64,000 nucleotides of DNA from Gilvibacter sp. SZ-19 (lineage in GTDB: Bacteria; Bacteroidota; Bacteroidia; Flavobacteriales; Flavobacteriaceae): positions 1,370,864 through 1,434,863 of the forward strand of contig NZ_CP019333.1 in NCBI RefSeq assembly GCF_002163875.1, given 5' to 3'. The notes beneath the pieces are model-generated. The model saw only the letters and a program-made list of their open reading frames with translations. It made no database searches and was not told where the DNA came from. This document shows positions 30,988 to 47,274 of the stretch, one piece after another; positions within the stretch are counted from its first letter, which is position 1, and every line of letters starts with the position of its first letter. A program made the position numbers and the translations under genes.

Positions 30988-32247
30988 TTATTGCAGCTCA
31001 ATCATTTTGAAAATTCTATCTCCAATTTTCGAGTCGAGCTTATTGTTTGAATCGAAAATGTTTAAAAAACCTAAAGCGCATTCATTCAATTCTTCATCAT
31101 TTTCATGAGAGTACCCTTTCCAATAAATGCCTTTGTGAACTACCCTATCTTCATTGTCTGGATACAGAAGCATACTCTTAGGACAATCCCAATACATATT
31201 GTAGACATACATTTGGCGCAGGTCGTCTAAAGAGGGTTTAGAAAAAGACGGAACCTTCCATTTGGTATCAATGATATAAACGACTTTATTTTCCTGTTTA
31301 ATCACAATATCAGGTCTAACTCTCCGAGAGTTCCAAAAGGCCTGGGATTCTTGACCATGAACACTGTAATTAGTTTCTTTTACCGCCTTTTTCAATTTTC
31401 CAAGAACGTAGCTCTCCCAAAGCGAATTCATATTAAACAGAAGCGCTAACATGTTTTCGTTTCCTTTAGTGATGTTTGGAGCAAAGTTTAATATGATTAA
31501 GCGAGCAATTTCTAATGCAGTTTGATATTGCTTCGTCTTTCTGTTTAGAGGAATGCGATTAAAGGTTTGTTGATCGACCTTAATTTTTGAGGTTTCTGGA
31601 AATTCTAATTCAACAATCTTGCTCGGACTGTATAGATAGGTTCCCTTAGAGAGTCTTATAACAATATCGAGTGCTTTACGTAGCACTTGATGAATTAGAT
31701 GATCCCTTTCATAGGTTTGATGCTCCGTATAAAAACGCTCTTTATGAACCAGATTTTTCGAAATGTGTTTAGCGAATACAAGCTTTCCTTTAAGAACAGA
31801 CAAGTTGTTTTGTTCCCGGTAATATTGTCTTATTAACCCTCGATGGATTAAAACTTGCAATTCATTTAAATACCACTCAAAATAGATGTCAAGGAGGTGG
31901 ATACTTTGCTTGTTTACTTGAGCGTTCCCAACCTGTTTAACCTTAATGTTTTTTGTAGCCTTAAGCATTTCAATTAAGGCCTTTTGCCAATCTTCTTTAT
32001 TTTGACTAGAGCGGTCAATTTTAGGCAGGATTTCGATAGTAAGACCATCAATTTGAACAACGCCTACGTAGTTTTGAGATATCACATTTCTATGACCGAC
32101 TTTAAAGTATTGATTGTTGTGAAACTCGTTCCATTTCACAAGGGCGTCAAAATGCCTTTGCTTAAATGTGCACTGGCTAGGAGAATACTTTTTACCGACA
32201 ACTAATTTATCGTATTCAAATACCTGTATCCGCTTATCGCTAGGCAT
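30988..32247 (-). CDS. mcrC: McrC-type nuclease subunit of a McrBC restriction system
   Basis: 419 aa. An N-terminal McrC domain (about residues 1-120, with YVGVVQIDGLTIEILPKID) is followed by a PD-(D/E)xK nuclease core: RRVRPDIVIKQ then VVYIIDTKWKVP, giving Asp and the D-x-K pair at about residues 312-332. It cuts DNA when driven by the McrB GTPase, usually at modified cytosine. Its start overlaps the mcrB stop by 8 nt, so the subunits are coupled. AT-rich like the rest of the island. Confidence 0.92.
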   Translation of the reverse strand: MPSDKRIQVFEYDKLVVGKKYSPSQCTFKQRHFDALVKWNEFHNNQYFKVGHRNVISQNYVGVVQIDGLTIEILPKIDRSSQNKEDWQKALIEMLKATKNIKVKQVGNAQVNKQSIHLLDIYFEWYLNELQVLIHRGLIRQYYREQNNLSVLKGKLVFAKHISKNLVHKERFYTEHQTYERDHLIHQVLRKALDIVIRLSKGTYLYSPSKIVELEFPETSKIKVDQQTFNRIPLNRKTKQYQTALEIARLIILNFAPNITKGNENMLALLFNMNSLWESYVLGKLKKAVKETNYSVHGQESQAFWNSRRVRPDIVIKQENKVVYIIDTKWKVPSFSKPSLDDLRQMYVYNMYWDCPKSMLLYPDNEDRVVHKGIYWKGYSHENDEELNECALGFLNIFDSNNKLDSKIGDRIFKMIELQ

Positions 32248-34879
32248 TGTTAATGATTGATCTAATTTTTTTAATGTCGATTTCTTCCAAAGGGATTAAA
32301 CTGTGCTTTTTATCCAATGAATATTCTACTTCGGCATCAAATTTTGCGAATAATTCTTCTCCATTTTGGTCATTTGTTTCTATAAACTGCTCGCCCAGTA
32401 TCAATCCAATTTTTGTATAGTCGCCAAAGAAGTATTCTTGAAGTAGTGGAATAATATTATCTTTAAAAACTTCGATCAATTTCTCCTTGGGATCATCTGA
32501 TTCTTTGACTTTATAAAAATAGGAGTGACCAATGGTATGATCACGATCGTATAGAGCCTCAACGCGCGCATTGATTACATCAAGTAGTTCCGATAAGTTG
32601 ATGCTTTCAACTTCAAAATCTCCGAGCTTTATTGGATTGGGCATCATTTCTTTAAAGGAGAATCTGCGTCGCAGCGCAGTGTCAAGAGCCTCCACAGAAC
32701 GGTCTGCGGTGTTCATGGTGCCATATATGTCTAGGTTTTGGGGGACTCCAAATTCATCTTTGGAATAGGGCAGCGTGGTTGTGAGTTCATTCTTAGCTCC
32801 TTTGCGCTTATCTGACTCTATCAAAGTAATTAACTCGCCAAATATGGCAGAAACGTTCCCTCGATTAATTTCATCAATGAAAATTGCATATCTATTGTCC
32901 GGATCCTTTTCAGCTTTGAGGCATATATTCTTGAATATCCCATCTTTTATTTGGTAGCCTAAGTCAGCTCCTTGTTCTTCGTCTGTTTCTGGTAAGAGCG
33001 GCTTTATTCCTTCTATAAAATCTTCATAGGAGAATGATTGATGAAAAGTGACGAATTCATAATGCTTTACTATGTTATCGGGATTTGGATTATAATTTTC
33101 TACTGAATCTTTTAATTCATATAATTCTGGTACTAAATCCTCTACACGTTCTTCTAGAATTTCCCAATGAGAGTCTTCAGTCTTATTAAAGATTAACGGC
33201 GGTCTTCTATTAGAAACATTAACAAATTCGCATTCGTCAATGGTATGGCTTTGTAATTGTCCCCAAATCGTTGCCCGCACGGTTTTGGAGTTTGATAGCT
33301 CTACTTTTTTCTGAATCCATTCATGTTCAAAGATCTCAGAAACCTTTGCACTTTCTTTATCCAATAATGCTATAGCGATAACCTGCCACCACGAACAACT
33401 GCTTACTACTGATTCGAAATGTTGTTCAGCGCTTATGGATGTTTCTTCTGAGATGTATTTTTCAAATAAGTTGTCTTTTAGGTAATAGGTTTTGCCTGTT
33501 CCTGGAGGGCCGTATAAAATTTGATTTAATGGAATAGATGGGGCACTCATGGGCTTTGTCTTTAAAAATTTCGCTCTGAATTCTTTGTCAAAAACTGCTT
33601 TTTCAAACTCTGTGTTGTTATGATTTCTAAAACCTGATTTTGAGGTTCGCCTTAGCTCTTCTTCAATTGCACCAAAGGTGAAGGGTTTAATTTCATCTAG
33701 TGCGGAATGTTCGTTAAAAGTAGTGTAGAAATGTCTTACAGGGCCATCGAAAGGAATGTAAGAATCATCAAGTTTTGAGTTTGAAATTATCCAATAGTCG
33801 TTCTGGTTCTGAGGCTTTAACCTCCAGATAAAACGTTGACCGATATTTAGATTAAGATATTTTGACCCACACGTAAATACAAGTCTTTCGTCCCCAATTT
33901 GCAGATTAAATTGTTGAACTATTTCATCTAAAAACTCAAAGTAGAAGAGTATTTCTTCTTCATTGAAAAACGAAAGAGCTTTTTCAAAATCAAAAGGTTT
34001 TTCATCCTCTCCCAATTTTTCATTTAAGAATCGCACATAATTTTTCTTTCCCATGATTGCCTTGGGAATACCATTGCTGTGATGATTATCATAATCTATA
34101 AAATCAGGATACTTATTACGTTCTTTTTTGCTAAATGTGAATTGTACTTCTCTTATAAATTCATCAACTTTTTGAGGATTTACTTCAAAAAAACTCTGAT
34201 TTGGGAAATAAGCTTCGATTTCATTCAATCTTTGTACGACAGATGCAATTGAGTTGCCTAGATAATAACTGTAAGATTCCGGCGCGTTCTCCAGCAACCA
34301 TTGGGCGAATTCTTCTTTTAGGTTTATGGCATTTACTGGGTTATCATCAAGATCGTTATTGGATTTATTACTATAGGCCAGAACATTCTTAATTATGTTG
34401 TCAAACTTCTCATTAGAGATCAATAAATTTTCAATTTTAGAATTTCTACAAACAGCTTTAATTTTTGGAAAGTACGTATCCAAAAACTGAAATAACTGTT
34501 CCGGGTTATTTTTGGTTATTATTCCACCACTTACAATAAATTTCTCATTATTCTCAGTCTCTTCACCTTCTTTGAAAACTGTTCTTAGTTCCTTGTAAAA
34601 ATCCAGTAGTAATTGGTCTTTTTCTCCTTTATGCACAATTTCAAAATTGAAACGCAAGCCGTCGCTATTAGGGAAAAAAGCAAGTCCAGCGCTTCGAGTC
34701 ATGTTAATTCCACCACTGCGATCAATTATACCAACAAATGCGTAATGCTCATTTCCTTGGAAGTAAAAACCTTTCTCAAATTTTTCACCACGATTTCTTT
34801 GCCTACATATAAAGTTGAATTCCGGTTGTTGCTGGCGATATTCTAAAAGAATGGAGAGAATGTCTTGGTGAAAAGTCAT
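32240..34879 (-). CDS. mcrB: McrB-type AAA+ NTPase with an extended N-terminal region
   Basis: 879 aa, larger than E. coli McrB. The N-terminal half (about residues 1-430) should recognise DNA but carries no domain I can name; it opens with a segment resembling MrcB-type N-terminal modules (FEKGFYFQGNEHYAFVGIID). The AAA+ core has Walker A LYGPPGTGKTYYL (about residue 455), then FIDEINRGNVSAIFGELITL (about 670) and GTMNTADRSVEALDTALRRR (about 725). In the family the N-terminus determines target specificity, so the modification or signal recognised here cannot be stated. No copy of the shared island operator lies upstream. Confidence 0.9.
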   Translation of the reverse strand: MTFHQDILSILLEYRQQQPEFNFICRQRNRGEKFEKGFYFQGNEHYAFVGIIDRSGGINMTRSAGLAFFPNSDGLRFNFEIVHKGEKDQLLLDFYKELRTVFKEGEETENNEKFIVSGGIITKNNPEQLFQFLDTYFPKIKAVCRNSKIENLLISNEKFDNIIKNVLAYSNKSNNDLDDNPVNAINLKEEFAQWLLENAPESYSYYLGNSIASVVQRLNEIEAYFPNQSFFEVNPQKVDEFIREVQFTFSKKERNKYPDFIDYDNHHSNGIPKAIMGKKNYVRFLNEKLGEDEKPFDFEKALSFFNEEEILFYFEFLDEIVQQFNLQIGDERLVFTCGSKYLNLNIGQRFIWRLKPQNQNDYWIISNSKLDDSYIPFDGPVRHFYTTFNEHSALDEIKPFTFGAIEEELRRTSKSGFRNHNNTEFEKAVFDKEFRAKFLKTKPMSAPSIPLNQILYGPPGTGKTYYLKDNLFEKYISEETSISAEQHFESVVSSCSWWQVIAIALLDKESAKVSEIFEHEWIQKKVELSNSKTVRATIWGQLQSHTIDECEFVNVSNRRPPLIFNKTEDSHWEILEERVEDLVPELYELKDSVENYNPNPDNIVKHYEFVTFHQSFSYEDFIEGIKPLLPETDEEQGADLGYQIKDGIFKNICLKAEKDPDNRYAIFIDEINRGNVSAIFGELITLIESDKRKGAKNELTTTLPYSKDEFGVPQNLDIYGTMNTADRSVEALDTALRRRFSFKEMMPNPIKLGDFEVESINLSELLDVINARVEALYDRDHTIGHSYFYKVKESDDPKEKLIEVFKDNIIPLLQEYFFGDYTKIGLILGEQFIETNDQNGEELFAKFDAEVEYSLDKKHSLIPLEEIDIKKIRSIINNA

Positions 34880-35202: not shown

Positions 35203-36552
35203 TTAGTAGAGAATTATATCTTTTTTCGCCCTTGTAATTGCGGTGTATTGATAGCGCAGGGTCGGCATGTAGAATGAGTTAAGCAGAACTTTATTCCATT
35301 CACCTCCTTGGGCCTTATTACAAGTTATTGAATGCCCGTAAGTAGCCCGTATTGCCCCGACATATCTATCATCCGAAGGATTTCCAGATTCTCTAAAAAT
35401 TTTATTTTTTTTGAAGCGTTCGTGTCTTAATTTGCCCTCTTGTTCTCTTGTAATTCCTTTTGGATCTATGACCGAATCAATTAATAAATAATCATCCAAT
35501 TCTTCTTCATTGTCTTCTAAATCCTTATAGATTAGGGTAACCGGGACGAATTTTAAACCAGCTACGAACTCGGTGCTACTCAAGTCTATAGATTTAATAA
35601 TTACATGATCTCCACTGTATAAGTTAACTCCATTTCTTTTCCAAGTTTGGGTAAGAATTAGCAAATCTTCTTTTTCGAGCACATTAGCCTTATCTCCATA
35701 TATCTTTTTGCGTACAACTCTGTTAAAAGCCATATTCATCTTATGTGTTGCTCCAATTGAAACAACATTATCAAATCCATGTTCATTAAAGTTTTGTATA
35801 TAAGAATCACAAGCATTCCAAAAGGACTCTCTGCCTACATTACTTAGATTGAAATGCTGTTTGCCTTCTTCAATGGCACGTCTTAGTCCGGTGGCATTTT
35901 TTAAAATATAACTACCATCTTCCTGTCTTTTAACCTCATCTAAATGGTGGGCTGATCCTGTAAGTTTAAAGTTAGATTCAATAAAATTTTGTGAAAGCGC
36001 TTTTGAATCTGATTCATTAATAGGGGGCAACTGATTGCGGTCGCCAAGAAATATTACTTTGTTTTCCTTGTTTCCTGTTTTAATAAACTTGATAAGGTCA
36101 TTCAGGAGCGAATCATTACTGGAAAATAAGCTGTTCTCTGACCTGGTTTTCACCGAATTTATCATTGATGCCTCATCGATGAGGAAAATTGTAAGATCCT
36201 CGACCTGATTTGGTTTTAAAACAAAACGCACTTCTCCAGTTTCGTTATTCACTGAAGTATTGTAGATCATAGAATGGATCGTACTGTTTACAGTTTTGCA
36301 CTTGCGCCCCAGAATTCTAGCGGCTCGCCCCGTTGGCGCTGCTATTTTATAGAATAACCCCTTCGAATTCAGGTAGCCAATTAAGGCTGTTGTAATCGAG
36401 GTTTTGCCTGTTCCCGCAGCCCCTGTAAGGATTAAGAAATCATCAGAATTGTCTGATGAAACAAAATCGGACATCGCGAGTAGTACATCTTTTTGGCCTC
36501 TTGTTGGGGTGTCAAATTGTAAGTAATCCAGAATTGTAACGCCTTGTCTCAT
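35203..36552 (-). CDS. RecD-like superfamily 1B DNA helicase
   Basis: 449 aa. AAA_30-type core with Walker A LTGAAGTGKTSITTALIGYL (about residues 42-61), APTGRAARILG, Walker B IFLIDEASMIN, a Gln-containing FLGDRNQLPPI motif, and the UvrD_C_2-type C-terminus ATYGHSITCNKAQGGEWNKV … YTAITRAKK. Predicted 5'-3' helicase, acting alone rather than in RecBCD. The gene has its own promoter with the shared island operator (36590-36612, -7 element at 36575-36582), so it belongs to the coordinated set and not simply to the retron transcript. Confidence 0.88.
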   Translation of the reverse strand: MRQGVTILDYLQFDTPTRGQKDVLLAMSDFVSSDNSDDFLILTGAAGTGKTSITTALIGYLNSKGLFYKIAAPTGRAARILGRKCKTVNSTIHSMIYNTSVNNETGEVRFVLKPNQVEDLTIFLIDEASMINSVKTRSENSLFSSNDSLLNDLIKFIKTGNKENKVIFLGDRNQLPPINESDSKALSQNFIESNFKLTGSAHHLDEVKRQEDGSYILKNATGLRRAIEEGKQHFNLSNVGRESFWNACDSYIQNFNEHGFDNVVSIGATHKMNMAFNRVVRKKIYGDKANVLEKEDLLILTQTWKRNGVNLYSGDHVIIKSIDLSSTEFVAGLKFVPVTLIYKDLEDNEEELDDYLLIDSVIDPKGITREQEGKLRHERFKKNKIFRESGNPSDDRYVGAIRATYGHSITCNKAQGGEWNKVLLNSFYMPTLRYQYTAITRAKKDIILY

Positions 36553-36574: not shown

Positions 36575-36612
36575 CAAACCTAGGACTAATGTGTGCAGTG
36601 TACTTGCATACA
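36575..36612 (-). promoter_or_regulatory. Island operator site 1 and -7 element (helicase promoter)
   Basis: Operator 36590-36612: read on the minus strand, TGTATGCA and TGCACACA with seven bases between. Seven bases later comes TAGGTTTG (36575-36582), a perfect TAnnTTTG. Start codon 22 bp downstream. Confidence 0.8.
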
Positions 36613-36617
36613 TAAAG

Positions 36618-37325
36618 TTAAAATTCACCTTCGACGGTATTAGATAGTTTGGTTAAGTCGGAGAGTATAGAGTCGTAAGTGGCAAACTTCAGGAATTTTT
36701 GAAGGTTATTTCGTTCTTCCATAGGACTTTTAGCTAGAATTGAGCATCGATGTACCCCCTCATTCCTGACTTTACGCAAATTGTCAATTGTATGACCAGT
36801 ATAATTTCCTTTAATATTAAAAAATGTTTTATTGAATGAATAAATCTTAGTCGCTATAGGAATATCTCCGATGTTAGTTATGGAATTATTACCGCGAAAT
36901 CTAGTACCTTCAATTGATTCAAGATGATCAATCAGATCATCAACTACAGGAAACAAATCATAGTAATAAAAGTTAATAAGGTTTTCGACTTGATAAAATG
37001 CAAAAACTAAGTAATCAAAAAAGCGTGTAAATTCTTTCTTTTCTTGCATATCCAGTCTAACTCCTTCCATTCTTAAATTATCTAATTCTAGTCTGGCTCT
37101 TAGTGTCTTATGAGGAATATATGAATAATCTATGCTTAATTCCGGGGATAAACTGAGGTAGTATTTTATTTTTTCGGTATTGGTAAAAACTTGCTCATCA
37201 TATAAGTTTGTTCTAGTGCCCGAAAACTTAAACTCCAAACTTTTTCTAAACCATAAATTGTTGTTGTCCTTGCAGATTTCGTCTATTAAGACTAGTAGTT
37301 TTTCTAAGCTCTCTTTCTTATACAT
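36618..37325 (-). CDS. HEPN-motif protein, likely retron effector
   Basis: 235 aa, all-helical in appearance, no membrane segment. The stretch LRKVRNEGVHRCSI contains R187-N188-E189-G190-V191-H192, the Rx4H (with Asn after Arg) motif of HEPN ribonucleases; preceding helices (FFDYLVFAFYQVENLINFYY) fit the fold. HEPN proteins commonly act as RNA-cutting toxins in phage defence. Its start overlaps the RT stop by 8 nt, so both are translated from one message; this tight link suggests it is the toxin held in check by the RT/msDNA complex. The RNase activity is inferred, not shown. Confidence 0.75.
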   Translation of the reverse strand: MYKKESLEKLLVLIDEICKDNNNLWFRKSLEFKFSGTRTNLYDEQVFTNTEKIKYYLSLSPELSIDYSYIPHKTLRARLELDNLRMEGVRLDMQEKKEFTRFFDYLVFAFYQVENLINFYYYDLFPVVDDLIDHLESIEGTRFRGNNSITNIGDIPIATKIYSFNKTFFNIKGNYTGHTIDNLRKVRNEGVHRCSILAKSPMEERNNLQKFLKFATYDSILSDLTKLSNTVEGEF

Positions 37326-38622
37326 CTTTATTTCTTTGTTCAGGAGACATTATTTCGATGTAAACTGGATCATACTCCTTCATCGCTTCGTCTAAACCAT
37401 CTGAGAAAATCGTATCCAGAATTATTGACTCGTAGTTATCATCGGACAGATTGATGGTTATAGCAGAATCTGGATTTAGTAATTCTCTAAATCTACTTCG
37501 GAGTTTTACATATGTTGGGTCATATTCTCCCTTAACCATTTTTAAATATAGTAACTTGCCCTCCAACACCATTATCAAATTGGGTGAGTCATTCTTTATA
37601 TGCCCTTTATCTTTGCGATATTTTACTCGAAATAACTCCGTGGCTTTATCATAACCATATCTTTCCCAGAAGTAAATCCAATGACGAATTTCTTTTATAT
37701 ATCGTTTAGGCACATTTACTTTCTCGTTTACCGTTAGGCCGGTTACCTCTTGTCTATATCCTCTTTTCTGCAAACGAACCTTGCTTTCTTTAACGTGGAA
37801 CTTTTGACCTACTATTATGCGCCTTACTTCACGGTCAAAGCTGGAATTGGCCGTGTAAATCGTTTCTGTGTCTCCCGAATCAAGACGATACACATTATGA
37901 TTGCTACTAAAGGTTATATCATCGGCATACCTCGTGTAATTAAGACCAAATCGCTTGGCAACGCCTGTGAGTCTCTTGTCTAAACGGTCGCATATGATAT
38001 TGGTTAACACTGGTGATGTTGAAGCTCCTTGCGGGAGTACGTTTAAGTTTACAGATTCCCATTTATCATCAATAAGCCTTTGAACTTCCATATTTGTACA
38101 ACAAATTGCTTTTATCATATTGGCAATTTTTTTACGTTCTACAGAGGTGCCTAAATTAAAGGGTTCAATTAGTAATCTTGCCCATACTCTATTTGCATCA
38201 ATGCTTGGGAAGAAATCTTTTAAGTCAATATTATAGACATAGTTTTTGCCGATATGTTTCCGAGCATTATTTACAATTGATCGATTCTGAATAAATCCAG
38301 TAGCATTATCATGAGGCTGGTGAATTGCACTCAAAATAATTGATACAGCCTTTTGAAACTCTTTTAAACCCTCAGATGGGGCATGAATTGTGCGTGTCCC
38401 ACCACTCTTTTTCTCAATTGAAAAAGAGAAGTACTTCTTTTCCATCTTAACATTTGGGTTTAAATTTATGTAGTAGTTCAGTTGCTGTTCTGAAAAAGCA
38501 ATAGTCTTCTCTTTATATATCAGTTCTTTTACTTTATTAAGTAGAAATAGAAAATCCTTTTTGCTAGACATATTCGCAAAAAGATCTCGGATATATTCGG
38601 TCTGATAAGTATTTAATTTCAT
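37318..38622 (-). CDS. Retron reverse transcriptase
   Basis: 434 aa. RT motifs in order: GTRTIHAPS (residues 75-83), GFIQNRSIVNNARKH with the retron-type NAxxH (NARKH, 119-123), NIDLKDFFPSI with the first catalytic Asp (133), PQGASTSPVLTNII (198-210), RYADDITFS with catalytic YADD (232-235), and the Y-region VTG motif (EVTGLTVN, 292-299) followed by NVPKRYIKEIR. NAxxH together with VTG distinguishes retron RTs from group II intron, DGR and Abi RTs. About 100 extra C-terminal residues follow the thumb. The msr-msd locus lies just upstream. Confidence 0.92.
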   Translation of the reverse strand: MKLNTYQTEYIRDLFANMSSKKDFLFLLNKVKELIYKEKTIAFSEQQLNYYINLNPNVKMEKKYFSFSIEKKSGGTRTIHAPSEGLKEFQKAVSIILSAIHQPHDNATGFIQNRSIVNNARKHIGKNYVYNIDLKDFFPSIDANRVWARLLIEPFNLGTSVERKKIANMIKAICCTNMEVQRLIDDKWESVNLNVLPQGASTSPVLTNIICDRLDKRLTGVAKRFGLNYTRYADDITFSSNHNVYRLDSGDTETIYTANSSFDREVRRIIVGQKFHVKESKVRLQKRGYRQEVTGLTVNEKVNVPKRYIKEIRHWIYFWERYGYDKATELFRVKYRKDKGHIKNDSPNLIMVLEGKLLYLKMVKGEYDPTYVKLRSRFRELLNPDSAITINLSDDNYESIILDTIFSDGLDEAMKEYDPVYIEIMSPEQRNKDV

Positions 38623-38633
38623 CTTAAAAGAAT

Positions 38634-38876
38634 GACAAACTGAAGTATATACTCTTTATCTATGGCTCCATATGCTAAAAATAGCCTTGCCATGACTTAC
38701 CATGATAATAAAAATCATAGCAATAAAAAGTGAGGGTTGTTTTTGTGGTTTCTTAAAAGAAATCAGTCAAAATAACTCCTCTAACATTCAGTTGTAGCAT
38801 GGCTACAACATTCTGCCGAATACAGCAGAATACCTGCCCGAAGGCAGGCGGGTCAATACAGTGACTTCAGTTTGTC
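38634..38876 (-). ncRNA. Retron msr-msd RNA locus
   Basis: About 243 nt on the minus strand, between the RT start and the preceding gene. It is closed by a perfect 13-nt inverted repeat: a1 GACAAACTGAAGT (38864-38876) and a2 ACTTCAGTTTGTC (38634-38646), a2 ending 12 nt before the RT ATG. Inside, the 5' half has three small hairpins (CCTGCC-TTCG-GGCAGG; ATTCTGC … GCAGAAT with a TATTCGG-type loop; GTTGTAGC-CAT-GCTACAAC), as in an msr. The 3' half has a long msd-like stem: 38716-38731 pairs with 38651-38664 (ACTTTTTAT/ATAAAGAGT with one wobble, then CTATG/CATAG). The exact branch G was not identified; no clear canonical AGC follows a1. Confidence 0.8.
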
Positions 38877-38959
38877 AAATTGTAACTTTCCAATAATCAG
38901 GGTAACTCGTGAATTGGAGATTCATAAAAATAGCAATAATAAATCATGTTATCCTAAGA
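38877..38959 (-). promoter_or_regulatory. Region upstream of the retron, candidate promoter
   Basis: 83 bp between the retron RNA and the stop of the unknown 157-aa-frame gene. A minus-strand TATTTTTA (38925-38932; 7 of 8 match to TAnnTTTG) might start transcription, but read-through from the upstream genes is also possible. No shared island operator here. Confidence 0.35.
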
Positions 38960-39364
38960 TCATTTCTGCTGATCGACATATTCAAAAAGAGCGGCCAGTT
39001 CGTGAATATTCAACTTCATTTCCCTTCCCTTATATGATTCGTGGACAATTCCTGAAGGTTCCAATATGACTGTATCAAAATAATTCGAATCTCTCATATC
39101 ATCTATTATTGAATCTTCTACCAGGCTATGCCATACTTTTACCTTCCATTCATTGTCAAATGGAATCATAGTATCCAAACCTATAACTTGTTTGACAGGT
39201 ATGAAGTTCAATTTATCAAATATTGGAATAGTCCTACCTCCTACAAAAGTGACTTCATAGTTATACTTTACCAGAAGAGTTATGGCCTCTTCAATTTTAT
39301 TATCCAAGGGAACAAGACCTTTACTTCGTTCTCGCTCCTTTAGTTTTTCGAGTAATTTATTCAT
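38960..39364 (-). CDS. Protein of unknown function, partner of the gene upstream
   Basis: 134 aa from ATG 39364 (MNKLLEKLKERERSKGLVPL), 13 nt after the stop of the upstream gene; an earlier start would overlap that gene by 55 nt. Soluble. The N-terminal helix is basic and the remainder is alpha/beta (YEVTFVGGRTIPIFDKLNFI; IHELAALFEYV at the end). No family recognised. Transcribed with the 129-aa gene from an island-operator promoter, so probably part of the defence set. Confidence 0.65.
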   Translation of the reverse strand: MNKLLEKLKERERSKGLVPLDNKIEEAITLLVKYNYEVTFVGGRTIPIFDKLNFIPVKQVIGLDTMIPFDNEWKVKVWHSLVEDSIIDDMRDSNYFDTVILEPSGIVHESYKGREMKLNIHELAALFEYVDQQK

Positions 39365-39377
39365 AACGTATTTTGTT

Positions 39378-39767
39378 CTAATTGAGAGAAATATTTTGTT
39401 CTCCATACCAATTGCAATGGTAAATATCAACAATTTCCTGACCTTCTATTTCAAAAAATAAAGCGAAGTGATTACCTGACTTATTGCCGATGAATTTGCA
39501 AACAGGTTGCAAACAATTGCAACCGTGGCAAGTATCAAGATCCATCAATAACTCTGTATCACCTAATTCTCTAAAATGCTCAAATCGCTCAGCAAGCTTA
39601 TTTACAAAAGCTTTTTTGCCGATATCTTCATAATCCACTCCAGGCTTTAGATAGATGTTAAGAAATTCAGTACTCATCATCATAATGGAACACCAAATGG
39701 TGTTAATGTAGTCTAAATTGTATCTGTTTTCAAGATCGCTGATTGAAAGTAGTGAGCTGCGTTTCAT
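39378..39767 (-). CDS. Cys-rich protein of unknown function
   Basis: 129 aa, soluble. The C-terminal half has a possible zinc site, LDTCHGCNCLQPVCKFIG (Cys spacing CxxCxC … C), followed by NHFALFFEIEGQEIVDIYHC. The N-terminal part is helical. I recognise no named family. Its promoter carries the shared operator (39794-39816) with -7 element at 39779-39786, so it is coregulated with the ATPase and type I systems, and it lies divergently beside the WYL regulator gene. A two-gene defence or toxin-antitoxin module is possible but unproven. Confidence 0.65.
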   Translation of the reverse strand: MKRSSLLSISDLENRYNLDYINTIWCSIMMMSTEFLNIYLKPGVDYEDIGKKAFVNKLAERFEHFRELGDTELLMDLDTCHGCNCLQPVCKFIGNKSGNHFALFFEIEGQEIVDIYHCNWYGEQNISLN

Positions 39768-39778
39768 AATTTTTTATG

Positions 39779-39816
39779 CAAGAATACCGCCTATGTGTGC
39801 AATAGACTTGCATACA
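39779..39816 (-). promoter_or_regulatory. Island operator site 2 and -7 element (unknown two-gene module)
   Basis: Operator 39794-39816, on the minus strand TGTATGCA and TGCACACA seven bases apart. The -7 element TATTCTTG (39779-39786) is 7 bases further, matching TAnnTTTG except one base. Confidence 0.75.
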
Positions 39817-39939: not shown

Positions 39940-40956
39940 ATGCCCTATTCTAAAAATCAAATAATTCGCTATCAAACATTGGATAGGTGTTTTCGTAGCA
40001 GGGTAAATCGATATTTTATAGATGACCTTGTAGAAGCCTGTCAGGTTGCTATCGAAGAATTTTCAGGAAATGCTGAGGCTATACAAAAGAGGCAAATCTA
40101 TAATGATATTGCCTTTATGAAAAGTGACAATGGGTATGCTGCTCCGATCATAAAGGACAAAATAGGAAGAAGCGTATATTACTATTATGAAGATCCTAAT
40201 TTCTCTATCAACAACCAACCATTAACCGAAGATGAAGCTTTAGAGCTAAAAGAAACACTTCTTACTTTAAACCGATTCAAGGGATTGCCTCAATTCGAGT
40301 GGATTGAGAGTATGACCACAAGGCTAGAGGCTTCATTTCAATTCGGAATAGATGCTAACCAAGTCATCGAATTTGATCAAAATGAATTTTTAAAAGGAAA
40401 AGAATTCATTAATGCTTTGTATCACGCAATAATCAATAAAACTCCATTAGAAATACATTACCAAAGTTTCAAAGAAAATGAACGGCAGATAATAGAATTG
40501 CATCCTTATTATCTAAAGCAATTCAATAATCGTTGGTTTGTATTTGGGCAGAATCCAAAATTCAAAGACATAACTAATTTAGCTTTAGACAGAATAGAAG
40601 ATATAGCACAATTAACAATTGATTTCATTGAAACAGATATAAACTTCAAAGAGTATTTTGAAGATTTTATTGGTGTTACGCGTTTTAATGAGCTAAGCCC
40701 ATGTAAGGTTGTCTTAAGAATTGAGCGGGACTTATGGCCATATATAGAAACCAAACCATTGCATGGATCTCAGAGAGTGTTGAATAGAACAATTGAGTTC
40801 ATAGATGTTGCATTACAGTTAATCCCAAATTATGAATTGGAAGCCGTAATTCTGCAGCACGGAGAAAGAATTGAGGTATTAGAACCTCTCGATTTTAGAA
40901 ATAAAATCACCGGTAGATTAAAGAAACTAATAGACAAATATAACCGTGCAGAATAA
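39940..40956 (+). CDS. WYL-domain transcriptional regulator
   Basis: 338 aa. An N-terminal DNA-binding region (YSKNQIIRYQTLDRCFRSRV … QKRQIYNDIAFMKS) resembles the winged helix of BrxR/CapW-type regulators, followed by a WYL domain (TPLEIHYQSFKENERQIIEL then HPYYLKQFNNRWFVFGQN) and a C-terminal extension. Family knowledge: such proteins bind inverted repeats and control phage-defence islands (BREX, CBASS), often relieved by a nucleic-acid-derived or damage signal. It is the best candidate for the protein that reads the shared 23-bp palindrome; its 3' end overlaps operator site 3. Its own promoter has no copy of that palindrome, only TATCTTTA about 65 bp upstream. Confidence 0.88.
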   Translation: MPYSKNQIIRYQTLDRCFRSRVNRYFIDDLVEACQVAIEEFSGNAEAIQKRQIYNDIAFMKSDNGYAAPIIKDKIGRSVYYYYEDPNFSINNQPLTEDEALELKETLLTLNRFKGLPQFEWIESMTTRLEASFQFGIDANQVIEFDQNEFLKGKEFINALYHAIINKTPLEIHYQSFKENERQIIELHPYYLKQFNNRWFVFGQNPKFKDITNLALDRIEDIAQLTIDFIETDINFKEYFEDFIGVTRFNELSPCKVVLRIERDLWPYIETKPLHGSQRVLNRTIEFIDVALQLIPNYELEAVILQHGERIEVLEPLDFRNKITGRLKKLIDKYNRAE

Positions 40957-40980
40957 ATGCACACATCAAATATAGATTTG
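40943..40980 (+). promoter_or_regulatory. Island operator site 3 and -7 element (ATPase promoter)
   Basis: Operator 40943-40965: degenerate left half ACCGTGCA, spacer seven bases, right half TGCACACA. TAGATTTG (40973-40980) starts exactly seven bases later. The -7 element ends 4 bp before the ATG, so the transcript is predicted to be leaderless or almost so. The left part lies in the end of the WYL gene. Confidence 0.78.
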
Positions 40981-40984
40981 CAAA

Positions 40985-42670
40985 ATGAACCAGGATCATT
41001 CAAAAGGTATTGCCTTTAAAAATTTTAGAAGGTTTCCGGAGTTTTCAATGCTTGAGTTTGGTGAGATCACTTATATGGTTGGTCGCAATAATTCAGGTAA
41101 ATCGACTATGGTAAAGGCGCTCCTTCTTGTTTTAGATTATCTAAAGAATCAACTATCTGACACATTCTCATTTGATAATCAAGCGCTCGAAGATGCCAAT
41201 ATAGTAACCTTTGGAAGGGCGAAGTGCAATTTTATTGATGAACCTGAGATTGTTTTCAATTTAAAATTAGGAGATTACAATATTACCTTAAACATTTCCG
41301 GAAATGATGATCAGACTAGAGCTAATGTCAATGTTCTGATTATTACAGATGACTGGAATGGTTATGAACTGGTGATTAACTATGATACGCAACGAACGCG
41401 TATAATAAAAAAACTTCCTAGACGAGATCAAATACTTGATACGCAGCAAGAATTAACAAAATTAGTAGCCGAAATTCAAAAATTGGAAGGGGCACTCAAA
41501 AATATCACTAAGAAAGGATCGAAAGAAGCTTTACAAATCAGTGACCAACTAAATAAATTAAGGGATAGACGAAATAGACTAGCACATAATGAAGAAATCC
41601 GCGAAGCCGAAGATGATCTCGAATACAGCCTTGAGTATCCAATAAATTATCAGGATGAGAACTTCGATGAAGACCTTCATGATGAATTTTTTGATCAAAC
41701 AGACGTGTACAATACGGAAGAGCATTTAGACGAGCTTTCCGCCCTAGATGAAGCGGAGGAAAACTCAGTTCCACGTTCAGAGGATAACGAACTTAAGGAA
41801 ATAGTGAGTGTTTTGCTTTACTACAACAACATTGCATATAAACAAGCGATAGAACTACGAGATAAATTCGCTGATGAATATGAATTCAATCAAGACATTG
41901 TTGAATTGGACAACAATAAGGAAGACTTAAAAGATTGGATTGATGAAATAGTGTCGACAATAGAGAGAGAGTCGTTTTATTACTTAGGTGCAAACCCTTC
42001 AAAACAGTCCGCACTGTTTCAGTTAAGAGACAAAAACAATGCCTTGGCACAAGCCATTCATGAGTTTAAACAACTTGATATTGGAGAGAGCACTGAAGAG
42101 GGCATGTTTGTAAAAAAATGGATGCGCGAGTTTGAGGTTGGACACAGTTATATTATTGACTTTTACGCAGGAGAGGCATATCAATTCCACGTTATTGGAG
42201 AGAATAAAACAGTCAACCACCTCTCTGACAAAGGTATGGGATCTTTACAGGCCATGCTACTTATCTTAAGAGTAGCAAGTCTAATTCGTATAAGTAAAAA
42301 GAGTGATAATACAATTACACTATTAATTGAAGAACCTGAGCTTAATCTGCACCCCGCACTTCAATCTAAACTCACCAATTTCTTTCATGAAGTTAATCGA
42401 GAATACGGTTTCAAGTTCATTATTGAGACTCACTCGGAGTATATGATAAGAAAAGCTCAGCTCTATTCAATAGAAGAAGATTACGCGAAAAACCTAGAGG
42501 TTAACCCTAATCCTTTCAAAATATTCTATTTCCATAAAGAAGAGGGACATTATGAGATGGAGTTTACCGAACAAGGAAAATTTAAAAAAGACTTTGGGCC
42601 AGGGTTCTACAATGAGGCATCTAATATTTCAATTGAAATAATCAAAAATATCCGAAAAATTAAAAGCTAA
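40985..42670 (+). CDS. AAA15/OLD-like ATPase
   Basis: 561 aa. Walker A GRNNSGKST at residues 33-41; a long charged coiled-coil insert (about 160-320, rich in Glu and Asp) instead of a compact ABC fold; ABC-like region SDKGMGSLQAMLLILRVASL (about 420), Walker B LLIEEPELNLHP (about 445-456), and FIIETHSEYMIRKAQL. Similar ATPases occur in OLD, Gabija, PARIS and retron-type defence. There is no TOPRIM region within the protein, so the effector is likely its partner gene, which overlaps by one base (TAATG). Operator site 3 drives the pair. Confidence 0.88.
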   Translation: MNQDHSKGIAFKNFRRFPEFSMLEFGEITYMVGRNNSGKSTMVKALLLVLDYLKNQLSDTFSFDNQALEDANIVTFGRAKCNFIDEPEIVFNLKLGDYNITLNISGNDDQTRANVNVLIITDDWNGYELVINYDTQRTRIIKKLPRRDQILDTQQELTKLVAEIQKLEGALKNITKKGSKEALQISDQLNKLRDRRNRLAHNEEIREAEDDLEYSLEYPINYQDENFDEDLHDEFFDQTDVYNTEEHLDELSALDEAEENSVPRSEDNELKEIVSVLLYYNNIAYKQAIELRDKFADEYEFNQDIVELDNNKEDLKDWIDEIVSTIERESFYYLGANPSKQSALFQLRDKNNALAQAIHEFKQLDIGESTEEGMFVKKWMREFEVGHSYIIDFYAGEAYQFHVIGENKTVNHLSDKGMGSLQAMLLILRVASLIRISKKSDNTITLLIEEPELNLHPALQSKLTNFFHEVNREYGFKFIIETHSEYMIRKAQLYSIEEDYAKNLEVNPNPFKIFYFHKEEGHYEMEFTEQGKFKKDFGPGFYNEASNISIEIIKNIRKIKS

Positions 42671-43683
42671 TGACAACAATTTATAGCGAACAGCAATTGT
42701 TGGATGAAATTGCCATATTCCCTGAAGACTATCCGCAGTGGAATAAGATTCTCAAGAGTGGTTTAAACATATGTATCAACATAAGTGATGATGACTTAGA
42801 TGAAAAGCTTATAAACCCCGAAGATCCCATTTTTTTAGCTCATCAAGCTTCTGCGAGTATGCCATTACCCGTTGCCTTGGAGAGTTTTATTGCAGACATA
42901 AAAGCAGATCTCACTAGAACATTAGAAAAACCAAGATCAATCTTTTTATTAGATATAGATGAAGCCGTAGCCCTTAACGCGAGACAAGATTTGGGTATGG
43001 CAATATATTCTGTCAACAACCTACCTGAAAAAATTCTTGATTTTTCTTATTCGGTAGATCTAGATAAAAATCAAAATATTCAAAACAACTGGAAAGGCAT
43101 CATCACTTTTGAGAAAGCTTTATCAAATAGCTTGATAGTTACGGATAACTTCTATTTCTCTAATGAAGACGATGGGATTAACCGTGGGTTTAGTAACCTA
43201 TTCAATTTTTTAGATGCTTATCTTCCTGATAGTTTGGCGGTGGAATATCAAATAGCTGTTTTTGCAAATGACTATAATAAACCGGAAGAGTGGTGGATAA
43301 AAGCGTATGGTCAATTACTGGCGAAAATTAGGGGCTTACGCCCATACGATATACATTTAGAGTTGATTCTTGCTCAAACCATCCATCGTAGAAGATTGAT
43401 AAGCAACTACGTCATTGGAAAAATGGACCATGGTTATGATCTTTTCCATGCTAGGAAAGTGGACGTTGTGAATTTAGACAATGAATTCGAACATTATGAG
43501 GTTTTTTCTAACCTCGATAATCTTGGCACCAAATATTTTCAAGCTGCGTCTAACACACTTGGTAAATTGGAAACTAAGTGCGCTACTTTATCAGCTTTTG
43601 TGAAGGCTAATGGAAATACTGCAGAAAGAATGTTATTTGGATGCAATAAGGACAAAACCATAAAAAACCGCCTATTAAATTAA
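42670..43683 (+). CDS. Uncharacterised partner of the ATPase, possible PLD-like fold
   Basis: 337 aa, coupled to the ATPase gene by a TAATG overlap. I do not recognise a Pfam family with certainty. Segments such as NSLIVTDNFYFSN … IHRRRLISNYVIGKMDHGYD resemble the MIT C-terminal, phospholipase-D-like fold (I-H-x-R-x-I-x-N … G-x-D-x-F), but the HKD catalytic motif is absent. No membrane segment or HNH, TOPRIM or DUF4435 signature seen. The context suggests an effector or sensor of a two-component defence module with the ATPase. The structural assignment is tentative. Confidence 0.7.
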   Translation: MTTIYSEQQLLDEIAIFPEDYPQWNKILKSGLNICINISDDDLDEKLINPEDPIFLAHQASASMPLPVALESFIADIKADLTRTLEKPRSIFLLDIDEAVALNARQDLGMAIYSVNNLPEKILDFSYSVDLDKNQNIQNNWKGIITFEKALSNSLIVTDNFYFSNEDDGINRGFSNLFNFLDAYLPDSLAVEYQIAVFANDYNKPEEWWIKAYGQLLAKIRGLRPYDIHLELILAQTIHRRRLISNYVIGKMDHGYDLFHARKVDVVNLDNEFEHYEVFSNLDNLGTKYFQAASNTLGKLETKCATLSAFVKANGNTAERMLFGCNKDKTIKNRLLN

Positions 43684-43721
43684 TGTGTGCACAAAAAATG
43701 CACACATGCGATATATATTTG
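43684..43721 (+). promoter_or_regulatory. Island operator site 4 and -7 element (hsdM promoter)
   Basis: Operator 43684-43706: TGTGTGCA, seven bases, TGCACACA, a perfect palindrome. TATATTTG (43714-43721) begins seven bases later. hsdM starts 39 bp downstream. Confidence 0.82.
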
Positions 43722-43760: not shown

Positions 43761-45539
43761 ATGAGTAATAATAACAAAGTAGAAGTAGGGTTTATTTGGC
43801 AGATTACAGACGATGTGCTACGCGATGCCTTTAAGAAAAATGAGATCGGGGATGTGGTCCTCCCTTTTGTAGTGCTGCGACGACTAGATTGTATTTTAGA
43901 ACCCGTTAACCAAAAAGTGAGAGATGCTTATGCCAATTTTAAAGACAAAGTTGACGGGGATAAGCTGGTTCCTATTTTACGCAAAGCTTCTGGAGGACTC
44001 AAATTCTACAATACCTCGAAACACACCCTGCATTCGCTAAAGGATGAACCGCAATACATTCAAATTAACTTCAACAATTATTTAAACGGATTCAACCCAG
44101 AGGTACAAGACATACTAGAGAGCTTCCAGTTTGATAAAATTGTAGCGCGCCTTACCAAAAATAAGTTGCTTTATGAGATGATCGATGCGATCTGTAAGAT
44201 AGATCTGCACACAGAGGCTATAGATAATCATGGAATGGGTTATGTTTTTGAAGAACTAATCCGTATCTCCAACGAGCAGTCCAATGAGACAGCGGGAGAG
44301 CATTTTACCCCAAGGGACGTCATTGAGATCATGAACAACTTCATGTTTGTTAATGAGAAAGATAAGCTCTCCAAGCCAGGAATTATTAGAACCATATTCG
44401 ATCCTGCCTGTGGTACCGGGGGTATGGTAAATTTGGGTAAAAAGTTTATCCTTGAACAGGTCTGTTCAGGGAGTGAAAATAAGCCTACCATTGTTACTTA
44501 TGGTCAAGAAATTAATGAGCAGTCTTATGCTATTGCTAAGTCAGAGGCCTTAATTACCGGCGAAGATGCCAATAATATTAAACATGGTAATTCTTTTAGT
44601 GAAGATCGCTTTCAAGGCAAGACCTTTCACTATATGATGGCCAATCCGCCTTACGGGGTTACCTGGAAGAAAGACCGAAAATTCATTGAGAATGAAGCCT
44701 TAAACCCTGCAGGGCGCTTTTATGCAGGAACTCCCAGAGTAAGCGATGGCCAGCTACTGTTTTTGCAGCACATGATCTCTAAGATGGAGCGCGAAGGTTC
44801 ACGAATTGGCGTGGTAACCAATGGTTCACCCCTGTTTACAGGAAATGCAGGATCTGGCGAAAGTGATATCCGCAGATGGATCATTGAAAATGACTGGCTG
44901 GAGTGTATAGTGGCTTTACCAAAAGATCTTTTCTACAACACTGGTATTAATACCTACATCTGGTTTTTAACCAATGACAAGGCTCCGCACCGTAAAGGGA
45001 AAGTACAGCTCATAAACGGCGATGCGCAAGAGACCATTGTAGTTACCGGAAAGGAAGAGACCAAGCACCTATTTTGCCAACCCAATAAGAAAAGTTTAGG
45101 TAATAAACGAAACGAAATTACAGCCGATCACATTGAGCAGTTATTAGCGCTCTACCAAAACTTTGAGGAAAATGAGCACTCCAAGATTTTTGATAACGAG
45201 TACTTTGGCTACTATCAGTTAACGGTTGAAAAGCCTAAAGTAGATGAAAACGGGAAAATTGTTTTGGATAGCAAAGGAAATCCAAAACCTGACAGCAAGA
45301 AACGCGATACTGAAAGTGTACCGCTGTCTGAAGACGTGGAAACCTATTTTGAGACAGAAGTTAAACCACACGTACCGAACGCTTGGATAGACTATGACAA
45401 AACCCGTATAGGATACGAAATTAACTTTACTAAGTATTTCTATAACTATACACCTTTGCGCGCGGCGAGCACTATTAAAACAGAAATTGAATCTCTTGAG
45501 CAAAATATTGCCGATCTATTAAAAGACTTAATTAGCTAA
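43761..45539 (+). CDS. hsdM: Type I restriction-modification DNA methyltransferase HsdM
   Basis: 592 aa. N-terminal HsdM helical domain (about 1-150), SAM-binding FDPACGTGGM (about residue 213), catalytic NPPYG (about 293). N6-adenine methyltransferase that protects and directs the restriction complex with HsdS. A C-terminal extension follows the core. Its stop overlaps hsdS (TAATG). Driven by operator site 4. Confidence 0.96.
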   Translation: MSNNNKVEVGFIWQITDDVLRDAFKKNEIGDVVLPFVVLRRLDCILEPVNQKVRDAYANFKDKVDGDKLVPILRKASGGLKFYNTSKHTLHSLKDEPQYIQINFNNYLNGFNPEVQDILESFQFDKIVARLTKNKLLYEMIDAICKIDLHTEAIDNHGMGYVFEELIRISNEQSNETAGEHFTPRDVIEIMNNFMFVNEKDKLSKPGIIRTIFDPACGTGGMVNLGKKFILEQVCSGSENKPTIVTYGQEINEQSYAIAKSEALITGEDANNIKHGNSFSEDRFQGKTFHYMMANPPYGVTWKKDRKFIENEALNPAGRFYAGTPRVSDGQLLFLQHMISKMEREGSRIGVVTNGSPLFTGNAGSGESDIRRWIIENDWLECIVALPKDLFYNTGINTYIWFLTNDKAPHRKGKVQLINGDAQETIVVTGKEETKHLFCQPNKKSLGNKRNEITADHIEQLLALYQNFEENEHSKIFDNEYFGYYQLTVEKPKVDENGKIVLDSKGNPKPDSKKRDTESVPLSEDVETYFETEVKPHVPNAWIDYDKTRIGYEINFTKYFYNYTPLRAASTIKTEIESLEQNIADLLKDLIS

Positions 45540-46933
45540 TGCAGAAAGCTTACGAGAAATATAAGGAGAGTGGTGTAGAATGGATCGGAAATGTTCCAAA
45601 TCATTGGGAACCCATTAGATTGAAGTTTTTGGGAGCTTTATATAGTGGTCTAAGTGGTAAAAAGGGCGACGATTTTAGAAAAGAAGATTCTGAATTTAAT
45701 CACAATTACATCCCATTTACTAACATCGCCAATAATTTTGAAATTGATTTGGAGAAACTAGATTCAGTTGAGATTTTTCCAGATGAAAATCAAAATCAAG
45801 TTGAAAAGAACGACCTGTTTTTTTTAATGAGTTCTGAAAATTATGATGATATAGGGAAAACAGCTATTCTATTAGATGATACAGAGAACACCTATTTAAA
45901 CAGTTTTTGTAAAGGTTTCAGGTTATTTGATAACAAGGACTTAGATGCCAAGTTTTTGAATTACCTATTGAGCGGTGATGTTTACAGAAAGATTTTATCA
46001 ATAGAAGCAAAAGGATTTACAAGAATTAATTTGCAGATGGGTAAAATCCAGAACCTGCCTGTAGTGATTCCAGCTTCTAAAATGGAACAATCCAAAATAG
46101 CAGCCTTTCTGGACTATCATACTACATTGATCGACTCTCTTATTGACAAAAAAGAAAAGCTCATTGAAAAACTTCAAGAGCAACGGCAGGCTATTATTAA
46201 CGAAGCTGTGACTAAGGGATTGAATCCTGGAGCTGAACTGAAAGATAGTCGCATTGATTGGCTTGGAAATATACCGAAGCACTGGAAGTTTATTAAGATT
46301 TCTTCTGTGGCAAAACAGAACCAATATTCAATTACTGGAGGTCCTTTTGGCTCAGATCTAAAGAATGAAGAATTCACTCCCGAAGGTGTTAGAATTATAC
46401 AACTTCAAAATATTGGTGTTGGCGAATTTAGAGATCATTATAAAATTTATACAAGTGAAGAAAAAGCGGATGAACTATTCTCATGTAATATTTTTCCAGG
46501 TGATTTGATTATTGCAAAAATGGCTGATCCTGTTGCTAGAGCTTGTATAATGCCAGACTTCGATAGAAGATACATTATGGCTTCAGATGGAATAAGATTT
46601 GAAGTTAATGATGAAAAAGTCTCTTCAAAATTTTTAGAATATGCCATTAATTCCAAATATTTCAATTTTCAGGCAGAATTAAAAAGCACAGGGACAACAA
46701 GGTTAAGAATTGGTTTAACAGAGTTTAAAAAATTAAAACTCTTGCTACCCCCAAGAGCCGAACAAGACATCATACTCGAATTTCTTGAAGGAAAAGACTC
46801 TTCAATTAAGAAGTCGATAGATAGCATAAATATTTCAATCCAAAAACTCAAAGAGTATCGTCAGTCACTAATTAGTGAGGCGGTAACCGGTAAAATAGAC
46901 GTAAGAGACTGGCAAAAACCTAACGATAGTTGA
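45539..46933 (+). CDS. hsdS: Type I specificity subunit HsdS
   Basis: 464 aa with two target-recognition domains: first begins GVEWIGNVPNHWEPIRLKFL, second DWLGNIPKHWKFIKISSVA, each followed by a helical conserved region (KLIEKLQEQRQAIINEAVTK; LKEYRQSLISEAVTGKI). This is the standard two-TRD design for a bipartite target. The recognition sequence cannot be read from the protein. Follows hsdM with a one-base overlap. Confidence 0.94.
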   Translation: MQKAYEKYKESGVEWIGNVPNHWEPIRLKFLGALYSGLSGKKGDDFRKEDSEFNHNYIPFTNIANNFEIDLEKLDSVEIFPDENQNQVEKNDLFFLMSSENYDDIGKTAILLDDTENTYLNSFCKGFRLFDNKDLDAKFLNYLLSGDVYRKILSIEAKGFTRINLQMGKIQNLPVVIPASKMEQSKIAAFLDYHTTLIDSLIDKKEKLIEKLQEQRQAIINEAVTKGLNPGAELKDSRIDWLGNIPKHWKFIKISSVAKQNQYSITGGPFGSDLKNEEFTPEGVRIIQLQNIGVGEFRDHYKIYTSEEKADELFSCNIFPGDLIIAKMADPVARACIMPDFDRRYIMASDGIRFEVNDEKVSSKFLEYAINSKYFNFQAELKSTGTTRLRIGLTEFKKLKLLLPPRAEQDIILEFLEGKDSSIKKSIDSINISIQKLKEYRQSLISEAVTGKIDVRDWQKPNDS

Positions 46934-46935
46934 TC

Positions 46936-47130
46936 ATGGAATTGTATGATTTTGATACTGTTTTAAGTTTTGGCCAACACAAAGGTGAAACGGTTGCAGA
47001 GGCCATGCAGAACAACCCTACTTATATAGCGTGGTGCTATGATAATATTGTTGATTTCTTTATCACTGACGGGGCCTGGGCAGCGCTTAGCCTTCATAAA
47101 GAATTAGAAGATGCTTTAGGGAGTATTTGA
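46936..47130 (+). CDS. Small protein with ExoX-C-like motif, possibly truncated by an in-frame TGA
   Basis: 64 aa from ATG 46936 to TGA at 47128-47130. Sequence VLSFGQHKGETVAEAM … NNPTYIAWCYDN resembles the small ExoX C-terminal-type domain (FGKYKGxxxxE … YxxWC). The same frame stays open for 45 more codons after the TGA (47131-47268), encoding a Lys/Glu-rich helix that reads like real protein (NKKFHETKRNRFKSEMLKRY). Either a nonsense mutation shortens a longer protein, or the tail is coincidental. Lies between hsdS and hsdR. Confidence 0.6.
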   Translation: MELYDFDTVLSFGQHKGETVAEAMQNNPTYIAWCYDNIVDFFITDGAWAALSLHKELEDALGSI

Positions 47131-47274
47131 ATTGACTCCAATGAAGTTCATAAGGCAATTAAAAAGAATAAGAAGTTTCATGAAACAAAGCGCAATAGGT
47201 TCAAAAGCGAAATGTTGAAACGCTATGAGAATGAAATTGAGGAGCGTTTAAAGGGCACGAGAAAATTGTAGCAC

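What the first reader, a model, noticed from the sequence alone, without database searches (positions are those of the whole stretch)
38960..39816. Unknown two-gene module under the island operator
A 129-aa protein with a Cys cluster (CHGCNC … C) and a 134-aa alpha/beta protein form an operon beside the WYL gene, controlled by the shared operator. Neither resembles anything I know. Co-regulation with restriction and ATPase genes suggests a defence role.
Basis: partly seen in the sequence, partly recalled or inferred. Interest (0 to 1): 0.6.

Follow-up and report, generated by a model that had tools for sequence, protein, structure and literature searches.

The report
Co-regulated small gene in defence island
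A small, undescribed cysteine-bearing protein sits back to back with a repressor gene in a bacterial anti-virus island and shares that repressor's likely DNA switch with the restriction and helicase genes; this makes it a plausible but untested partner of the island's control system, while the second gene of the pair is an orphan.

Summary
Both ORFs look coding, lie 13 nt apart and match nothing convincing in Pfam, NCBIfam, PADLOC, PHROGs or the PDB by sequence. The operator is real: TGTRTGCA-N7-TGCAYACA has exactly three sites in the 3.1-Mb genome, all in this island (before the helicase operon, the 129-aa gene and hsdM). The 'two-gene module' is not a unit: the 134-aa protein has no convincing relative. 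The 129-aa protein (P0001) belongs to a flavobacterial family with invariant C80, C83 and C118; its model resembles the NTF2/SnoaL fold at moderate confidence. All four close relatives (three at 50-56% identity, one broken copy) stand divergent from a WYL gene with an operator-like palindrome between, beside type I RM or BREX genes; none has the 134-aa gene. P0001-bearing WYL genes are scattered on the WYL tree. Five of 12 loci with distant relatives also lie near Druantia, BREX, Zorya, type I RM or Tmn genes. Best reading: P0001 is a stand-alone gene of WYL-controlled islands, probably a metal- or ligand-binding accessory of the switch rather than half of a toxin pair. Its biochemical role is inferred, not shown.

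The parts
39378..39767 (-). P0001, 129 aa, Cys-cluster protein with predicted NTF2/SnoaL-like fold; the gene divergent from WYL
38960..39364 (-). P0002, 134 aa orphan; coding by codon usage; model unreliable
39794..39816 (.). operator TGTGTGCA-N7-TGCATACA in front of P0001; just downstream of a weak -35/-10-like match (39843-39816)
36590..36612 (.). second operator copy, before the helicase-McrBC operon
43684..43706 (.). third operator copy, before hsdM
40943..40965 (.). weaker operator-like site overlapping the WYL stop codon, before the AAA gene; same place in 15 of 25 WYL loci of this clade
39940..40956 (+). WYL-WCX regulator (BrxR/CapW-like), presumed repressor of the sites above
40985..42670 (+). 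AAA_15/OLD-like ATPase (AriA-like by PADLOC)
42670..43683 (+). 337-aa partner of the ATPase, unclassified
43761..50268 (+). type I restriction-modification genes (M, S, 66-aa ExoX-C-like ORF, R); named by eye and by the matching order in L003, whose M gene was scanned
38633..38877 (-). retron-like ncRNA closed by a 14-bp terminal inverted repeat
37318..38622 (-). retron-type reverse transcriptase
36618..37325 (-). 235-aa gene after the RT, possible retron partner, unclassified
35203..36552 (-). 449-aa PIF1/RecD-like helicase (PADLOC PDC-M16A candidate)
30988..34879 (-). McrB-like AAA protein and McrC

Best explanation
P0001 is a stand-alone accessory gene of WYL-controlled defence islands in Flavobacteriaceae. 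Supported by sequence: it lies divergent from the WYL gene, and its promoter region carries the palindrome that also precedes the helicase-McrBC operon and hsdM, so one WYL dimer species would hold all of them off and release them together. Inferred: the protein is a small soluble NTF2/SnoaL-like cone whose Cys80/Cys83/(Cys85)/Cys118 cluster with Asp114 binds a metal ion at the mouth of the fold, and it acts on the switch itself or on a signal common to several defence systems (for example by binding or buffering the WYL ligand), because it keeps its place beside WYL while the neighbouring defence genes change. P0002 is a rider of this one genome, read from the same promoter, possibly with the retron behind it.
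For: Three exact operator sites in 3.1 Mb, all here. Four of 4 close P0001 relatives are divergent from WYL with GCA-N7-TGC palindromes about 124-132 nt before the WYL start, against 0.058 expected per 255 nt. In the sister WYL loci without P0001 (L101, L108, L113) that upstream site is missing while the stop-codon site is kept. Cargo differs: AAA + type I RM with Dnd-like genes on the other side (L003), type I methyltransferases (L002), BREX (L004, L025). P0001-bearing WYL genes are scattered on the WYL tree (5 rows, 5 changes, 500 of 500 shuffles as low). Window and L003 share the order P0001-WYL-AAA-hsdM (AAA about 61% identical, P0001 51%), yet their WYL proteins are only 33% identical. 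C80, C83, C118, D114, K51, F54 and F62 are invariant in 14 aligned members. Fold: Foldseek best E 7.6e-3 with the leading rows nearly all NTF2/SnoaL/cystatin-like, VIA Z 8.7.
Against: Distant family members are not WYL-linked and 7 of 12 such loci show no defence neighbour that I recognised, so the family's basic activity need not concern WYL or phages. All 40 further WYL loci that I fetched lack P0001, so WYL does not need it. The structural model has mean pLDDT 60 and pTM 0.59 from 3 sequences, and VIA's own note says that Z near 8 can be a common arrangement. No metal site was tested. In L033, L036 and L040 the third Cys (C85) is missing. No expression data exist here.
Confidence: 0.42

Rival explanations
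1. P0001 is itself a small anti-phage effector (a one-gene defence system), repressed by WYL because it is costly; it does not act on the regulator.
For: Same operator as restriction and helicase genes. Nine of 16 family loci outside the window have PADLOC defence genes within about 4 kb. In 19 random control loci, matches at E <= 1e-20 were confined, in the 25 of 30 families shown, to GajA/AriA/Old/mad3-type ATPases and one helicase, each family matched by 1 or 2 of 128 proteins.
Against: No known toxin or nuclease family match. Seven of 12 distant-relative loci are in ordinary surroundings by eye. The control comparison is small: 5 of 12 non-WYL loci against a few of 19.
Confidence: 0.28
2. 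P0001 is a general cytosolic NTF2-like protein (ligand-binding or enzymatic) that was captured by a WYL-controlled promoter; its link to defence is only positional.
For: The family is broader than the WYL-linked branch: 20 of 397 family genomes match at E <= 0.01, the window's own included, many in thiamine, carotenoid or other housekeeping surroundings by eye.
Against: Four of 4 close relatives keep WYL and the palindrome although their WYL genes belong to a clade different from the window's; a mere passenger would be expected to drift away.
Confidence: 0.2
3. P0001 and P0002 form a two-gene toxin-antitoxin or effector-inhibitor pair.
For: Two small genes 13 nt apart on one strand under one operator; both look coding.
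Against: None of the four close P0001 relatives is followed by a P0002-like gene. In L003 the next divergent operon has its own operator-like site at -599, so there P0001 seems to stand alone. P0002 has no convincing relative in 397 or 395 genomes.
Confidence: 0.06

Closest known systems
BrxR-controlled defence islands (pEFER, Acinetobacter BREX; PMC9122601, PMC9122589)
   Same: WYL-WCX regulator beside defence genes; imperfect inverted repeats upstream; a second site (R-BOX2) before the next operon; repression of island promoters (passages read).
   Different: Here there are three exact operator copies plus a stop-codon site, more transcription units, and an extra divergent NTF2-like gene. 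The passages seen describe no such partner; 'divergent' has 0 occurrences in PMC9122601.
CapW-CBASS (PMC9122588)
   Same: WYL dimer on a palindrome of about 20 bp overlapping the promoter -10 (passages read). The 39794 site lies next to a -10-like match.
   Different: No CBASS genes recognised here; several operons and a divergent small gene.
CapK-CapS (PMC13373217)
   Same: A small partner gene that changes the state of a defence repressor, the kind of role proposed here for P0001 (abstract and outline read).
   Different: CapK/CapS are kinase and STAS-like proteins; P0001 is NTF2-like by model and its repressor is WYL. The analogy is functional and untested.
NTF2-like superfamily (SnoaL/KSI; e.g. 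9iq3, 4kvh)
   Same: Predicted helices followed by four antiparallel strands; about 100 residues aligned.
   Different: About 10% identity; the CxxCxC...C cluster is not something I know from described members (recall, not searched).

Membership tests
NTF2-like superfamily (P0001) | cone-shaped alpha+beta fold | tested here: inconclusive
   Model pLDDT 60, pTM 0.59. Foldseek leading rows nearly all NTF2/SnoaL-like but best E 7.6e-3; VIA Z 8.7 at 3.7 A over 100 residues. Favours membership, not proof.
NTF2-like superfamily (P0001) | sequence match to a curated NTF2/SnoaL profile | tested here: not met
   0 Pfam families for P0001 at E <= 1. Of 14 members, 2 give a weak Tim44 hit, best E 0.059. 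The superfamily shares no common sequence motif (PMC3924330, abstract start in the listing), so this does not exclude it.
WYL-WCX (BrxR/CapW-like) regulator | WYL and WCX domains | tested here: met
   PF13280 3.1e-12 and PF25583 9.1e-6
WYL-WCX (BrxR/CapW-like) regulator | N-terminal winged helix that binds an inverted repeat | not testable with these tools
   No HTH profile hit; the inverted repeats are present, binding unmeasured.
WYL-WCX (BrxR/CapW-like) regulator | defence genes adjacent | tested here: met
   McrBC, helicase, RT and AAA genes by profile, type I RM by eye, in the window
Toxin-antitoxin pair (P0001/P0002) | the two genes occur together in relatives | tested here: not met
   P0002 absent from L002, L003, L004, L025
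Toxin-antitoxin pair (P0001/P0002) | one product toxic, the other neutralising | not testable with these tools
   needs expression tests
Retron (neighbour, 36618-38877) | retron-type reverse transcriptase | tested here: met
   PADLOC retron RT models to 2.5e-103 and NCBIfam retron models, the latter below their cut-offs
Retron (neighbour, 36618-38877) | structured ncRNA with terminal inverted repeats before the RT | tested here: met
   z -7.1 against 100 dinucleotide shuffles; 14-bp terminal repeat. No Rfam match at E <= 1.

The most novel reading that the evidence does not exclude
WYL plus the NTF2-like Cys protein is a portable two-gene switch for defence islands. The Cys protein would sense or carry a metal, redox or small-molecule cue of infection and set the WYL repressor's state, and because its own promoter carries the operator it would form a feedback loop. 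The switch has been joined to RM, Dnd-like and BREX cargo with at least two separate WYL clades.
Probability: 0.2. Interest if true: 0.72.

Novelty: new variant of a known kind. Interest (0 to 1): 0.5.

Why it matters
How WYL repressors of defence islands are switched is open. A gene that keeps its place beside WYL and shares its operator, while the defence cargo changes, is a concrete and small candidate for the missing part. The exact three-site regulon also makes this island easy to test with reporters.

Tried and rejected
Viral contigs with P0001, P0002, A2, A3, A4: no relative. Plasmids and phages with both proteins by tblastn, and phages with the DNA: nothing.

P0002 as a dehydroquinase-like fold: weak AroQ hits (E 0.016; the G713 match, read as AroQ by eye) with a local motif only. 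The model is too poor to search (pLDDT 46) and I did not search it.

The first genome-wide operator scan used the wrong spacing (N8) and found nothing; repeated with N7. The HEPN idea for the 235-aa gene was a label of mine in a script only; no family hit.

Rows dropped: of 21 matches, L021-L023 were never fetched wider, and L037-L039 were fetched but not used because the blastp gave no hit at 1e-2. L035 and L036 (long fusions) and L004 (broken copy) were left out of alignment A1. L006 equals L003, and L005 lies inside L025; each is counted once. Of the 20 control loci, L139 was left out to stay under the residue cap. The neighbour scans were of chosen proteins; two searches were the even-handed ones, and they list families, not loci. 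Genus searches around G155 (1 genome) and G093 (3 genomes) added two distant matches in one more genome (G773) that I did not follow.

Literature: (NTF2-like + anti-phage + defense island) returned 0 papers; searches gave no paper on this gene in the listings seen. In PMC12839542 NTF2 has 0 occurrences.

Full report
Setting. The window lies in a 3.1-Mb single-contig genome. A genome of the same family group with a close P0001 relative (G368) has it on a contig of the same length as a record named Flavobacteriaceae bacterium S0862 (L003), so the window is taken to be from that family. Around the finding stand McrB-like and McrC genes, a PIF1/RecD-like helicase, a 235-aa gene, a retron-type RT, the two ORFs in question, a divergent WYL-WCX gene, an AAA_15 ATPase with a 337-aa partner, and type I RM genes.

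Observation. Both ORFs exist as stated and look coding. Pfam, NCBIfam, PADLOC and PHROGs give nothing usable for either, and the PDB by sequence gives only weak hits.

The operator. TGTRTGCA-N7-TGCAYACA, with up to 2 mismatches allowed, occurs at exactly three places in the genome, all exact, and all in this island: window 36590-36612 (before the helicase-McrBC genes), 39794-39816 (before P0001) and 43684-43706 (before hsdM). The reversed control pattern has none. The arrangement recurs elsewhere. L003 has like sites before its P0001 relative, before its next divergent operon (-599, with Dnd-like genes), at its WYL stop codon and before its hsdM position. L077 has one that begins 64 nt before a helicase 59% identical to the window's. 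L076 has one just after its 339-aa gene that follows the ATPase. A weaker site sits over the WYL stop codon in 15 of 25 loci of this WYL clade, against 1 of 20 loci of the other clade and 0.027 expected per stretch. I call the two clades defence and housekeeping from their neighbours; that is my label.

P0001 relatives. One scan of genome contigs gave 3 loci, and 397 family genomes gave 20 with a match at E <= 0.01, own genome included. Four close relatives (L002, L003, L025, and L004, whose copy is broken across frames) are all divergent from a WYL gene. Downstream of those WYL genes stand type I methyltransferases (L002), AAA + type I RM (L003), and BREX genes (L004, L025). All four, and the window, have GCA-N7-TGC palindromes about 124-147 nt before the WYL start. 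Three sister WYL loci without P0001 lack that site but keep the stop-codon site. None of the 40 further WYL loci that I fetched, out of the list, has a P0001 relative.

The P0001-WYL pairing does not follow one WYL lineage. On a 45-row WYL tree the five P0001-bearing rows need five changes, as many as in shuffles. The window's WYL groups with L076 and L077 (65-66% identity, no P0001). L003's WYL is 33% identical to the window's although the adjacent ATPases are about 61% identical. Either P0001 was gained and lost often, or WYL genes were exchanged next to it. Loss in the sisters cannot be told from gain with these data.

Wider family. Twelve further loci (L026-L036, L040) carry distant relatives (18-31% identity for the ten that are in the alignment). 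None holds a WYL gene related to the window's by blastp. Five have defence genes near: DruE and DpdE-like (L026), BrxA-BrxB-BrxC directly downstream (L029), ZorA/B/E (L036), type I M and S (L033), Tmn (L040). Seven have none that I recognised. Nineteen random loci of 12 kb gave matches at E <= 1e-20 in only a few of 128 proteins, so the family leans towards defence surroundings; the numbers are small and no test of significance is claimed.

What the protein is. In 14 aligned members C80, C83, C118, D114, K51, F54 and F62 are invariant. C85 is present in most, not all. The model (3 sequences, pLDDT 60, pTM 0.59) has helices, then four strands. C80-C85 are in the loop between the first two strands and C118 at the end of the last, which could place them together; I did not measure distances. 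Foldseek's leading PDB matches are nearly all NTF2/SnoaL/KSI-like (best E 7.6e-3), and VIA gives Z up to 8.7. I take an NTF2-like fold as likely and a metal site as plausible.

P0002. No convincing relative in 397 family or 395 phylum genomes; the few weak hits are unrelated reading frames or an AroQ-like enzyme by eye. Its model is unreliable. It is not part of a conserved pair.

Retron behind it. 38633-38877 (-) is a strongly folding RNA (the 338-nt gap has z -7.1) closed by a 14-bp terminal repeat just before the RT. RTs 44% identical to the window's occur in L089 and L090, again divergent from WYL with an operator-like site about 130-150 nt before WYL; their putative ncRNA stretches fold less strongly (z -3.3 and -4.0 against mononucleotide shuffles) and showed no such repeat. 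In the window P0001 and P0002 lie between the operator and the retron, and no minus-strand terminator was predicted between, so the retron may be read from the P0001 promoter. That is an inference.

Mechanism. Supported by sequence: shared operator, divergent pairing with WYL, changing cargo. By analogy with BrxR and CapW (passages read), WYL is expected to repress and to be released by a ligand. Inferred: P0001 is co-produced on release and acts as a metal- or ligand-binding accessory of the switch (0.42), or as a one-gene effector (0.28), or is a captured general protein (0.2). A TA pair with P0002 is unlikely (0.06).

Noticed in passing
window 40943-40965; L002, L003, L004, L025, L077-L080, L082, L087, L088, L101, L108, L113: An operator-like palindrome overlaps or adjoins the WYL stop codon in 15 of 25 loci (window included), just before the next gene, so the repressor's own gene end seems to serve as the operator of the cargo operon.
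   Followed up: partly
window 36618-38877 (-); L089, L090: Retron with a 434-aa RT, a 14-bp-closed ncRNA and an unclassified 235-aa partner; related RTs (44%) in two other WYL-divergent loci where an operator-like site lies directly before the putative ncRNA.
   Followed up: partly
window 35203-36552 (-); L077: PIF1/RecD-like 449-aa helicase (PADLOC candidate PDC-M16A) with an operator before it here and in L077 (59% identical).
   Followed up: partly
window 40985-43683 (+); L003, L076: AriA-like ATPase plus unclassified 337-aa protein between WYL and type I RM; the same order of ATPase and following gene in L003 and L076.
   Followed up: no
window 46930-47130 (+); L003:83-439: Small ORF like the C-terminal part of exodeoxyribonuclease X (E 1.9e-5) between hsdS and hsdR; a similar 118-aa ORF lies next to hsdS in L003.
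   Followed up: no
L033:9252-10543 and L036:7518-8812: Both distant P0001-family loci share what look like the same 133/134-aa and 199-aa neighbour genes, near type I RM and Zorya genes respectively.
   Followed up: no
L004:7925-8228: The P0001 relative in this Winogradskyella MAG is broken across frames while the divergent WYL gene and the palindrome are kept.
   Followed up: no
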